From Bartonella sp. AU16XJBT (GTDB lineage Bacteria; Pseudomonadota; Alphaproteobacteria; Rhizobiales; Rhizobiaceae): 64,000 nt of DNA. Shown piece by piece: positions 34,141 through 40,269 of this stretch. The notes below the pieces were generated by a model, which had not been told where the DNA came from, searched no databases, and worked only from the letters and a program-made list of their open reading frames with translations. Every line of letters starts with the position of its first letter. The first letter of the stretch is position 1. The stretch lies in contig NZ_JAQITF010000004.1 of assembly GCF_028618665.1 (NCBI RefSeq), forward strand, positions 62,001 through 126,000. The letters are read 5' to 3'. The position numbers were made by a program, and so were the translations under genes.

Positions 34141-34262
34141 TTCCCTTGCCGGTTGCGAGCGCCTTTTTATGCGTATTCCGGGAGTCAAAAATACTGACCT
34201 CGAATCAGCTTTTTGCTTTTAGTGCTTATCGCCCCTGGACAGAGCAAAATCTCCCGGAATTT
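34141..34262 (-). ncRNA. Truncated orphan Brt element G (promoter and 5' half missing)
   Basis: Keeps the 3' half of the element: both CTCCCGGAAT/ATTCCGGGAG arms, the apical hairpin in an AGTGCTTATCGCCCCTGG variant shared only with element F, and the CCGG near the ribosome site. Homology stops at 34262 inside the palindrome, so no promoter or 5' hairpins remain. It leads into a six-codon remnant frame (MQKGSL) instead of a trp gene. Confidence 0.75.
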
Positions 34263-34689
34263 CTATCAACTTTATCTCTTTGAAGCAAAGAATAGCATTT
34301 CTCTCAAGCGTTTTTATAAAAATAAAAATGTGTTTTATTGCTTTTTTGCATGCTTTTTCTCATTCGTATGTGTCTATACCGTAAAATGCTGTATAACATA
34401 CTGATTTAAATGATAGTTTACTATTTTAAATGTTGTATGCTTGAATATTGTACGACTATCCCATTTTAAACTTCTTACGGTGAAGCAGTTAAGAGCATTT
34501 TCTTACACGTTACAAGCCGATATTTTGTGGAGCAAAATAATTGATAAAGAAATAAAAATGTATTTCATGAATTTTCTAAAAGATTAAAGGCTTCTACAAT
34601 ATTGAGGATTAGGAAAGCCTATGATGGTGCGTGTTTGCATTTTTATGAAGTAAAGAAGGGGCATGAAGTAAAGAGGACAGGAGCATGAA
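34263..34689. other. Spacer left of the Sel1 fragment
   Basis: No gene is supported. A diverged fragment resembling the dispersed repeat core (AAAGGCTTCTACAATATTGAGG) lies at about 34584-34606. Confidence 0.35.
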
Positions 34690-36302: not shown

Positions 36303-36668
36303 TTAGCTTGCATTCTCATCAGAGAGTAACTGCAAAATGGCTCTCTTTTTTATCGTGGTCAAAACTCTAAATTTTTTGAGCAGTTGGTATTCTTCTGTGC
36401 TGGAGATGATTTCATCATGATGATAAGGAGGCTGTTGTTTCGTGATGATATCTGCATAAAAAAAGGAAATCGGAACATTGAGGATATCAGAAATTTCCAT
36501 TAAACGCCCCGCTCTGACACGATTTAAGCCGTTTTCATATTTTTGAATTTGTTGGAAACTGACGCCTAAAGCATCTCCTAAAGTTGTTTGAGACATTTTG
36601 AGCCTTTTTCGTCTCAAGCGAATTCTTTTGCCGACCAGAAGATCAATATTAAGATTGTTGGTTTGCAT
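36303..36668 (-). CDS. Trp-family XRE-type HTH regulator, copy C (intact)
   Basis: 121 residues. An N-terminal MQTNNLNIDLLVGKRIRLRR lead is followed by an XRE HTH (LKMSQTTLGDALGVSFQQIQKYENGLNRV, about residues 23-52), then NVPISFFYADI and a conserved C-terminal helix (KFRVLTTIKKRAILQLLSDENAS). It is the kind of protein called Trp (transcriptional regulatory protein), paired with Brt RNAs in B. henselae, where Trp1 affects badA and biofilm. An unusual Arg (NRVRAG) replaces the Ser found in the other copies at the end of the HTH. Preceded by Brt C and a GGGAGGG ribosome site. Confidence 0.88.
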   Translation of the reverse strand: MQTNNLNIDLLVGKRIRLRRKRLKMSQTTLGDALGVSFQQIQKYENGLNRVRAGRLMEISDILNVPISFFYADIITKQQPPYHHDEIISSTEEYQLLKKFRVLTTIKKRAILQLLSDENAS

Positions 36669-36681
36669 TTCACCCTCCCGC

Positions 36682-36886
36682 CGGTTGCGAGCGCCCTCGC
36701 ATGAGTATTCCGGGAGTTAAAAACACTGAGTCCGAATCAGCATTTTGCTTTTAGTGCTGGTAAGCACCTGGACATAGCAAAATCTCCCGGAATTCCGGGA
36801 CCCCCACATCAGTGGGTTCATTTTTATGTATCGGACCTTAGGGTTTTTAATCCCCGTTGATCGTTGCGTATACGATCAAAAATACC
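36682..36886 (-). ncRNA. Brt-type structured leader RNA C
   Basis: Same architecture as A. Important differences preserve pairing. The 5' hairpin is TTGATCG/CGATCAA instead of TTGGTCG/CGACCAA, a two-sided change, and the second hairpin is CCCAC-ATCA-GTGGG with an altered loop only. Leads into intact trp copy C. Confidence 0.85.
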
Positions 36887-36892
36887 CTTTCA

Positions 36893-36921
36893 TTCATAAA
36901 GTAATTTGAGAAGATTGGCAA
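36893..36921 (-). promoter_or_regulatory. Promoter of Brt C
   Basis: TTGCCA at 36921-36916, 17-bp spacer, TATGAA at 36898-36893. Confidence 0.78.
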
Positions 36922-37677: not shown

Positions 37678-37833
37678 TAAAAAATAGTTTTTAATGAGAG
37701 GCCGTGTGATTTTGATGCAAGTAATAAAGCATAACTATTTTTCTTATTGGAGATTGTTTGCGCGGGTAAATGATATAGTGTGTTTTCTTTGTCAATGAAA
37801 ATGCCGTTAATTAAGCTTGTTGGTTTGCATTGT

Positions 37834-38039
37834 CCCCGCCGGTTGCGAGCGCCCCCTTATGCGTATTCCGGGAGTTAAAAACACTGAACTCGAATCAGCA
37901 TTTTGCTTTTAGTGCTGGTAAGCACGTGGACATAGCAAAAGCTCCCGGAATTCCGGGATACCCGCAAAGCGGGATCAATTCATGTTTAGATTTAAAGCTT
38001 TAGAGCTCTCCTTACTGTTGTGTATGAAATCAAAACATC
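37834..38039 (-). ncRNA. Orphan Brt element D2 without a trp gene
   Basis: The 3' half is well conserved (CCCGC-AAA-GCGGG hairpin, palindrome, GGTGC/GCACT hairpin, SD arm). The 5' TTGGTCG hairpin has decayed (TTACTGT...GAAATCAA). After its ribosome site comes an ATG at 37830 and seven codons MQTNKLN ending in TAA, the stump of a deleted trp gene. It might act as a free RNA if still transcribed. Confidence 0.78.
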
Positions 38040-38819: not shown

Positions 38820-38994
38820 TAAAAAATAGTTTTTAATGAGAGGCAGTGTGGTTTTGATGCAAGTAATTTTGATGCAAGTAATAAAGCATAACTATTTTTC
38901 TTACTGGAGATTATTTGCGCGGGTAAATGATATAGTGTGTTTTCTTTGCCAATGAAAATATCGTTAATTAAGCTTGTTTTTGCATTGTTCCCTC

Positions 38995-39196
38995 GCCAAG
39001 TGCGCGCGCCTTCGCATAGTATTCTGGGAGTCTAAAAATACTGAAACCTAATCAGTCTTTTTGCTTTTAGTGCTTATCGCCCCTGGACAGAGCAAAATAT
39101 CCCGGAATTCCGCGATACCCAAAAAGTTGGTCAATTCATGTTTGAGTTTTCAGGCTTTAGAGCCCTCTTGATCGTTGCATATGCGACCAAGAGACC
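38995..39196 (-). ncRNA. Orphan Brt element F without a trp gene
   Basis: Most diverged full-length copy. The 5' hairpin survives with one G-U (TTGATCG/CGACCAA on the plus strand). The apical hairpin is the AGTGCTTATCGCCCCTGG form shared with G, and the palindrome is damaged (GGAATTCCGCG). The ATG at 38983 opens only MQKQA before TAA. The -10 (TATGAA, 39208-39203) is kept; the -35 is degenerate (TTGTAA). Confidence 0.72.
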
Positions 39197-39522: not shown

Positions 39523-40269
39523 TCACATAGAATTTAATGCACAAGGAATGGCATCTTGACTAAAAGGGACCTCCGCTCCTTTTAAGCGATTAATAAGTTT
39601 GGGAAATGTCTCTTGTACGTGTTTTTCAAAAGAAAGGTAGTAAATTCCATTAACATCTGAAGGTATTTCAACGCCTTCTTTGTATAAAATAGCTATTTTA
39701 TCAAAAGGAAGTATGGAGATTAACATTCCCATCTCGAGAATAACATTTTGTCGTGCACGGGGGTGCGCTTTTGTTTCACCGTCAGATATAGCATAGCCTA
39801 TATCATCGGGAGTTAGCAGTACAATGCCAAATCCTATAGAACCTTTACAAATTTCTTTTTTCAAAGTTTCAATGATGGGAAAGCCATTACCACCAGTATT
39901 TTGTAAAATGTATGGTTCGAGCTCAAGTCTGCGAAGAATAAGTTCAAGTTGCTCTAAGGCAACGTGGTCATGACCATGAACGATAAAAATTTTTTTATTT
40001 GAGGTATTGGAAGCAATTTTTGGAAAAGGAGTCGTTGATTTTGTTTCTATATATTGAACTAAATCTTCTCTCAACTTTTGTTTTGTGTTTTCTTTGCCTT
40101 GAAAGCTAAGTGTTCCTGTACTTTCATACCAATTAATAATTCCTCCATCGCAGGTTTTGATCTGATATCCTCCAGAAGAATTAAGTGATAGAGACTTAAT
40201 TTCTTTAATTTTATATCCACACTTGCAAACTATGTTTTGAAGATCTTCAAACGTTCCTCTGTATTTCAT
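39523..40269 (-). CDS. TIR-like predicted nucleotide-binding / NAD-hydrolase protein
   Basis: 248 residues. Residues about 93-215 match the TIR-like domain of 'predicted nucleotide-binding' proteins and CAP12/Pycsar effectors: KKIFIVHGHD (92-101), GFPIIETLKKEI with Glu134, GFGIVLLTPDDIGYAI, HPRARQNVILEMGML (169-183) and EIPSDVNGIYYLSF. In this family TIR domains cleave NAD+ in anti-phage defence. The N-terminal ~70 residues (SSGGYQIKTCDGGIINWYESTGTLSF) form a separate small beta-rich domain that I do not recognise. No cyclase or STING partner lies next to it, so it is a stand-alone candidate. Confidence 0.8.
   Translation of the reverse strand: MKYRGTFEDLQNIVCKCGYKIKEIKSLSLNSSGGYQIKTCDGGIINWYESTGTLSFQGKENTKQKLREDLVQYIETKSTTPFPKIASNTSNKKIFIVHGHDHVALEQLELILRRLELEPYILQNTGGNGFPIIETLKKEICKGSIGFGIVLLTPDDIGYAISDGETKAHPRARQNVILEMGMLISILPFDKIAILYKEGVEIPSDVNGIYYLSFEKHVQETFPKLINRLKGAEVPFSQDAIPCALNSM

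What the first reader, a model, noticed from the sequence alone, without database searches (positions are those of the whole stretch)
36668..36886. Leader RNA can fold two exclusive ways, one hiding the ribosome site of the HTH gene
Seen in every complete copy: an upstream ATTCCGGGAGT arm is a perfect 11-nt complement of a downstream ACTCCCGGAAT arm, and the same CTCCCG can also pair with the CGGGAG of the Shine-Dalgarno (CGGGAGGG). The first pairing frees the ribosome site, the second blocks it. Inference: a switch or attenuator explaining why Brt is abundant and Trp scarce in B. henselae.
Basis: partly seen in the sequence, partly recalled or inferred. Interest (0 to 1): 0.75.

Follow-up and report, generated by a model that had tools for sequence, protein, structure and literature searches.

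The report
Strand-swapping leader RNA in Bartonella
A structured RNA leader in front of a small DNA-binding-protein gene in a Bartonella species does look built to swap pairing partners, but comparing relatives does not support the specific claim that one fold hides the ribosome site.

Summary
The finding is a copy of the published Brt leader family, which lies before small HTH (Trp) genes in Bartonella (PMC5387305). The arms exist, but the perfect complement is 10 nt, not 11, in this copy. The CGGGAG at the ribosome site is in 4 of 7 window copies and 22 of 336 genus copies. The host is not B. henselae-sized (2.28 Mb, 30 matches).

Among 336 full-length copies, arm1:arm2 is preserved by compensatory change (swap test 28:6; 16:1 in copies with a reading frame). 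Pairing of arm2 with the ribosome site has none (16:17), and its predicted probability in this copy is 0.00. The strongest signals are two long-range pairings from the 5' strand: to the linker before arm2 (136:21) and to the loop of a CUGA/UCAG hairpin (148:17). Together they form a double pseudoknot. They are retained more often where the HTH frame is intact.

Best reading: a Bartonella-restricted pseudoknotted cis-regulatory leader with strand exchange around arm1. Its output step is undetermined; no U-tract terminator precedes the gene. The ribosome-site half is unproven.

The parts
36893..36921 (-). Promoter-like -35 TTGCCA (36916-36921) and -10 TATGAA (36893-36898), 17-nt spacer
   Evidence: Coordinates. 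TTGCCA (up to 1 mismatch), 16-18 nt, TATGAA (up to 2) in 185 of 336 copies; reversed-sequence control 0 of 336. The stricter consensus scan did not list it.
36857..36881 (-). 5' hairpin H1
   Evidence: Swap test 114 better, 8 worse, 45 ties.
36831..36855 (-). 5' strand: GGG, A1 (36843-36850), local CCC, A2 (36831-36836)
   Evidence: A1:K 136:21:11; A2:P3 loop 148:17:3; GGG with local CCC 97:39:16.
36803..36816 (-). Hairpin H2
   Evidence: Swap test 132:18:17.
36793..36800 (-). 'Left' arm TCCCGGAA, rival partner of arm1
   Evidence: Swap test 24:7:26, 5:2:17 in copies with an ORF; at least 6 of 7 pairs in 228 of 233 copies with an ORF.
   Evidence: Standard pairs with arm2 in 314-332 copies at each of 10 positions (n 317-336); swap 28:6:15.
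36742..36783 (-). Hairpin P2 with a conserved internal loop (TATGTCCA / TAA)
   Evidence: Outer helix 136:11:21, inner helix 30:0:12.
36726..36740 (-). Hairpin P3: near-invariant CUGA/UCAG stem, variable loop (36730-36735) pairing with A2
   Evidence: 61 loop types among 336 copies; in 23 own-genome copies all 6 loop pairs show changes on both sides.
36717..36724 (-). Linker K, pairs with A1
   Evidence: 136:21:11; 4 of 8 pairs with double changes in 23 own-genome copies.
36686..36701 (-). Terminal hairpin TGCGAGGGCGCTCGCA, no U tract after it
   Evidence: 97.1% of cells paired in 23 copies, no covariation 33:32:18. Largest T count in any 8-nt window of the 25 nt after it: 5 in 2 of 336 copies, never more.
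36674..36679 (-). Shine-Dalgarno GGGAGG
36303..36668 (-). HTH (XRE/Cro-CI type) gene, Trp-like, 121 aa
   Evidence: ORF; Pfam HTH_3, E 2.9e-13.

Best explanation
The region is a Brt-type 5' leader acting in cis on the HTH gene behind it. Shown by comparison: hairpins H1, H2, P2 and P3; a long-range helix A1:K; a loop-strand pairing A2:P3 loop; and arm1:arm2 closing P2, P3 and K. A1:K and arm1:arm2 cross, so if formed together they are pseudoknotted. Shown more weakly: arm1 can alternatively pair with the 'left' arm as a local hairpin that is made first during transcription. Inferred: the RNA switches by strand exchange around arm1 (left:arm1 early fold, arm1:arm2 plus pseudoknots mature fold), and a signal or folding kinetics sets the choice. 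Inferred: Trp output falls because translation starts poorly and/or Rho and RNA decay remove the unprotected trp message, leaving the stable leader behind, since no intrinsic terminator lies before the gene.
For: Nearest-neighbour swap test on 336 copies, better:worse: A2:P3 loop 148:17, A1:K 136:21, arm1:arm2 28:6, left:arm1 24:7; in 233 copies with an ORF 109:5, 106:3, 16:1, 5:2. Unpaired control combinations are even: 62:59, 61:59, 56:49, 49:60. Independent count on 23 own-genome copies: 78 double-change cells against 33.1 in shuffles, 0 of 500 reaching it. Two copies changed left, arm1 and arm2 together, keeping both pairings (c101_L227, c170_L062). Retention tracks the gene: A2:P3 loop 193/233 with an ORF against 47/103 without (p 1.4e-11), A1:K 187/233 against 54/103, left:arm1 228/233 against 81/103, arm1:arm2 225/233 against 88/103. 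Finding copy folds better than 200 of 200 shuffles, z -4.4. Published: deleting the 3' part of brt1 raises trp1 transcription (review PMC8070961, passages seen).
Against: left:arm1 covariation is not significant in copies with an ORF (5:2:17). 10 of the 11 copies with strict double changes in arm1:arm2 lack an ORF. The predicted ensemble of the finding copy uses neither arm1:arm2 (0.00) nor arm2:SD (0.00) but arm2 with the 5' strand (0.81), and that GGG:arm2 pairing has no covariation (12:17). Copies without an ORF are more divergent overall (mean score 181 against 209), so structure loss may be general decay. Relatedness of copies is only partly controlled. PMC5387305 also proposes a trans-acting role, which I could not test.
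Confidence: 0.62

Rival explanations
1. One reading: arm2 either pairs with arm1 (ribosome site free) or with the ribosome site (blocked).
For: arm1:arm2 is supported. CUCCC can pair with the G-rich site in nearly every copy, mean duplex -9.2 kcal/mol. SD is the dominant arm2 partner in 60 of 333 copies, 7 of the 22 with CGGGAG. The SD is unusually strong, -10.7 to the anti-SD against -5.2 for 29 ordinary window ORFs, as one might expect of a site that must compete.
Against: No covariation (16:17). CGGGAG in 22 of 336 and 0 of 8 B. henselae-like copies. Other C-rich heptamers fit the SD as well as arm2 does, -9.1 to -10.1 against -9.9. The base that would give a perfect 7-bp match is G in only 13 of 336.
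Confidence: 0.22
2. Transcription attenuation at the 3' end of Brt, as proposed in print.
For: Brt RNAs of 194-203 nt end 10-18 nt before trp, and trp reads are scarce (PMC5387305); 3' deletion raises trp1 transcription (PMC8070961). Compatible with Rho-dependent termination.
Against: No U tract after the terminal hairpin in 336 of 336 (at most 5 T in any 8-nt window, 2 copies), and that hairpin shows no covariation (33:32). The terminator-like hit on this strand is the left:arm1 hairpin with GATTTTGC, about 100 nt earlier, where published Brt RNAs do not end.
Confidence: 0.35
3. The palindrome and arms are DNA operators for the HTH protein, not RNA elements.
For: TCCCGGAATTCCGGGA is a perfect palindrome and the gene codes for an XRE-type regulator.
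Against: CCCGGAATTCCGGG with up to 1 mismatch occurs at 19 places in the own genome, and by position all 19 lie in Brt copies, so it is not a spread operator. Strand-specific pairing with distant segments covaries.
Confidence: 0.08
4. Brt is mainly a trans-acting sRNA and the arms serve target pairing.
For: Proposed in PMC5387305 from antisense knock-down and pull-down data mentioned in PMC8070961.
Against: Intramolecular covariation, and structure that is lost more often where the HTH frame is lost, point to a cis role; the two are not exclusive.
Confidence: 0.2
5. A short upstream ORF (ATGCGAGGGCGC...) regulates by translation.
For: In this copy it ends one base before the trp start codon.
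Against: Its end relative to trp varies: 34 copies end at -1, 135 run long or in frame, others scattered.
Confidence: 0.04

Closest known systems
Brt RNAs of Bartonella henselae with downstream trp genes (PMC5387305)
   Same: Same arrangement: about 200-nt conserved leader, HTH gene directly behind, multicopy, Bartonella only. G023 with 9 matches and 1.93 Mb fits their Houston-1 strain.
   Different: The paper gives RNAfold structures and a riboswitch/terminator hypothesis. In a term search of its main text 'Shine' and 'ribosome binding' have 0 occurrences.
Riboswitches as a general kind
   Same: Works like one: structured 5' leader, mutually exclusive pairings, conserved internal loop in P2, pseudoknots.
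   Different: No ligand shown here; no Rfam family reached its gathering score in the window and the 5 sub-threshold hits at E up to 5 near the region were implausible and on the other strand. Heme dependence is claimed in PMC8070961, untested here.
Loop-strand pseudoknots that gate initiation, such as repZ of IncI plasmids (recalled)
   Same: A hairpin loop pairs with a distant strand in a leader.
   Different: There the pseudoknot partner lies at the gene's start; here it lies in the 5' strand. Comparison rests on recall.

Membership tests
Brt RNA family | Sequence homology over about 200 nt, copies in other Bartonella | tested here: met
   Sequence-only model from 23 own-genome copies: 49 of 71 genus genomes match at E <= 0.001.
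Brt RNA family | HTH gene directly downstream | tested here: met
   ORF at 36303-36668, Pfam HTH_3; an ORF of at least 55 aa behind 238 of 336 copies.
Brt RNA family | Restricted to Bartonella | tested here: met
   1 of 297 genomes drawn from the order, the own genome (stricter filters); 0 matches in 14 non-Bartonella loci that encode a related HTH protein.
Brt RNA family | Highly transcribed as a separate short RNA | not testable with these tools
   Published for B. henselae only; promoter-like elements in 185 of 336 copies.
Riboswitch | Mutually exclusive folds | tested here: inconclusive
   arm1:arm2 28:6 and left:arm1 24:7, but left:arm1 5:2 in copies with an ORF.
Riboswitch | Binds a small ligand | not testable with these tools
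   Needs in-line probing or a binding assay.
Riboswitch | Member of a curated class | tested here: not met
   0 Rfam families at gathering score in the window.
Translational SD-sequestering switch | Conserved anti-SD pairing | tested here: inconclusive
   Pairing possible in most copies but no covariation (16:17) and not specific.
Intrinsic transcription attenuator | Hairpin followed by a U tract before the gene | tested here: not met
   No 8-nt window with 6 or more T in 336 of 336.

The most novel reading that the evidence does not exclude
Brt leaders are a new class of regulatory RNA confined to Bartonella: a double pseudoknot, in which a 5' strand reads the loop of a fixed CUGA/UCAG hairpin and the linker before arm2, coupled to a three-strand exchange (left/arm1/arm2), sensing a ligand (heme is the published suspect) through the conserved P2 internal loop, with each paralogue carrying its own loop-strand code.
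Probability: 0.3. Interest if true: 0.75.

Novelty: new variant of a known kind. Interest (0 to 1): 0.5.

Why it matters
Brt/Trp pairs are multicopy regulators tied in print to the BadA adhesin and biofilm growth, and their RNA has been drawn only as minimum-energy folds. A covariation-backed architecture gives defined contacts to test, separates the supported half of the switch model from the unsupported half, and turns 'possible riboswitch' into a question that probing can settle.

Tried and rejected
Tried and rejected. (1) Loop codes kept distinct within a genome to avoid cross-talk: 169 distinct loops against 168.4 expected, and within-genome cross-pairing equals between-genome (-3.32 against -3.43 kcal/mol), so no support. 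(2) Upstream ORF: inconsistent end. (3) Other partners for the ribosome site: H2 62:59, 5' CCC 61:59, left arm with the CCGG before the SD 56:49; none. A column-pair scan listed no strong partner for the SD among its top 75. (4) 5' end with AAUACC, present in the minimum-energy fold: 49:60. (5) GGG with arm2, which dominates the predicted ensemble: 12:17, so undecided. (6) Palindrome as a spread operator: no copies outside Brt. (7) Rfam: nothing. (8) RNAalifold on 23 copies picks arm1:arm2 with P2 and P3, but cannot draw pseudoknots.

Rows dropped: 636 matches are tallied in the genome rows; from the loci fetched, 529 hits collapsed to 384 distinct copies, of which 48 partial ones were left out, giving 336. 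One search used 333 of these (arm1 not located in 3). One search used 206 of the 238 with an ORF, the rest having a start called inside the hairpin.

Full report
What is there. The stretch 36668-36886 is, on the minus strand, the 5' leader of an HTH gene (36303-36668, 121 aa, Pfam HTH_3). It belongs to the Brt RNA family of Bartonella described in PMC5387305 (abstract, passages, part 1 of the Results and part 1 of the Discussion seen). That paper reports nine highly transcribed RNAs of 194-203 nt in B. henselae, each 10-18 nt before a poorly transcribed trp gene, and proposes a riboswitch or terminator. A review (PMC8070961, passages seen) adds that removing the 3' part of brt1 raises trp1 transcription and that a reporter behind brt1 responds to heme.

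The observation. In this copy the perfect match is 10 nt. The 11th pair is perfect in 1 of 7 window copies. CGGGAG is in 4 of 7. The genome holds 30 matches in 2.28 Mb, so it is not B. henselae; named HTH relatives at up to 87% are B. tribocorum and kin.

Collecting relatives. A sequence-only model from 23 own-genome copies matched 49 of 71 Bartonella genomes (22 had none at E <= 0.001 under stricter filters). It matched only the own genome among 297 drawn from the order, and nothing in 14 non-Bartonella loci with a related HTH protein. Loci fetched gave 336 distinct full-length copies. They were aligned by sequence alone.

The test. For each proposed helix I paired copies that are closest outside the helix but differ in both arms. 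I then asked whether each copy's own two arms fit better than exchanged arms. Control combinations with no expected pairing come out even (62:59, 61:59, 56:49, 49:60). Known-type hairpins come out strongly (H1 114:8, H2 132:18, P2 136:11 and 30:0). arm1 with the left arm is supported overall (24:7, 26 ties). arm2 with the ribosome site is not (16:17, 10 ties). Split by the presence of an ORF of at least 70 aa (233 and 103 copies), arm1:arm2 is 16:1 and 15:3, left:arm1 5:2 and 17:7, arm2:SD 6:5 and 10:11. The support for left:arm1 therefore rests mainly on copies without an ORF.

Concrete compensations. Eleven copies in 7 genomes carry strict double changes in arm1:arm2, but 10 of these lack an ORF and some are otherwise broken. 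Ten further copies in 10 genomes, 9 with an ORF, have CCGGGG in arm1 opposite CCCCGG in arm2 in place of CCGGGAG and CTCCCGG; these may be one inherited event (my reading of the 17 rows). In c101_L227 and c170_L062 the left arm, arm1 and arm2 have all changed so that both pairings survive.

The variable 6-7-nt loop of the near-invariant CUGA/UCAG hairpin has 61 types among 336 copies. It is complementary to the A2 strand of the same RNA (148:17; 109:5 with an ORF). The linker K before arm2 is complementary to A1 (136:21; 106:3). On 23 own-genome copies with a pseudoknot-aware count, all 6 A2:loop pairs and 4 of 8 A1:K pairs show changes on both sides; the whole structure has 78 double-change cells against 33.1 in shuffles (0 of 500), and sliding the partner lowers pairing from 90.6% to 48.2% or less. 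In the same alignment arm1:arm2, left:arm1 and arm2:SD show no double changes, so they are untested there. A column-pair scan ranks A1:K, A2:loop, H1, H2 and P2 pairs among its top hits, along with several alignment-noise pairs in the A strand.

Energies. The finding copy folds far better than shuffles (-80.6 kcal/mol, z -4.4). In its non-pseudoknotted ensemble arm2 pairs with the 5' strand (0.81), not with arm1 (0.00) or the SD (0.00). Over 333 copies the dominant arm2 partner is the 5' strand in 158, arm1 in 92, the SD in 60 and none in 23. These models cannot hold the pseudoknots and favour nested rivals, so they do not decide the matter. GGG:arm2 itself has no covariation (12:17).

Link to the gene. 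Pairing is retained more often where the HTH frame is intact: A2:loop 193/233 against 47/103, A1:K 187/233 against 54/103, left:arm1 228/233 against 81/103, arm1:arm2 225/233 against 88/103. This fits relaxed selection after loss of the gene, and so a cis role; general decay of old copies is an alternative.

Output step. No U tract follows the terminal hairpin in any of the 336 copies, so an intrinsic terminator before trp is unlikely. The trp Shine-Dalgarno is strong and G-rich (-10.7 against -5.2 kcal/mol for 29 ordinary window ORFs, first-ATG starts). It fits arm2 (-9.9) no better than other C-rich heptamers (-9.1 to -10.1). My inference: poor initiation and/or Rho and decay remove the trp message while the stable leader stays. 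That step is not shown.

Comparison with print. Searches of the held library found PMC5387305 and PMC8070961 as the papers on Brt; 'Bartonella' with 'pseudoknot' gave 8 listings, none on Brt by title. The library lacks most subscription journals, so a published structure may exist elsewhere.

Verdict. The leader is a member of the known Brt family. Its pseudoknotted, partner-exchanging architecture is the new part.

Noticed in passing
window 39523-40269, minus strand: 248-aa protein with a CAP12/Pycsar-effector TIR domain (Pfam PF10137, E 9.9e-30) next to the Brt-trp cluster: a possible anti-phage effector, no partner gene looked for.
   Followed up: partly
window 37832-37985, 34143-34275 and about 38900-39125, minus strand: Decayed Brt copies without an intact HTH gene; the first two keep arm1 and arm2 intact, and the one at 37874 has lost A2:loop complementarity (0 kcal/mol, row L001 TTCGAGT).
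   Followed up: partly
window 36785-36800, minus strand, with following GATTTTGC: The left:arm1 hairpin followed by UUUU scores as terminator-like inside the leader; published Brt RNAs run past it.
   Followed up: no
L008, L020, L025 (own genome): Some copies have A2 and P3 loop that no longer match (for example L020 -0.1, L025 -0.5 kcal/mol), as if made by recombination between paralogues.
   Followed up: no
L130 (G017:C17, 4700-11700): Brt copies repeated every 390 bases (10348, 10738, 11128), too close for full HTH genes between them.
   Followed up: no
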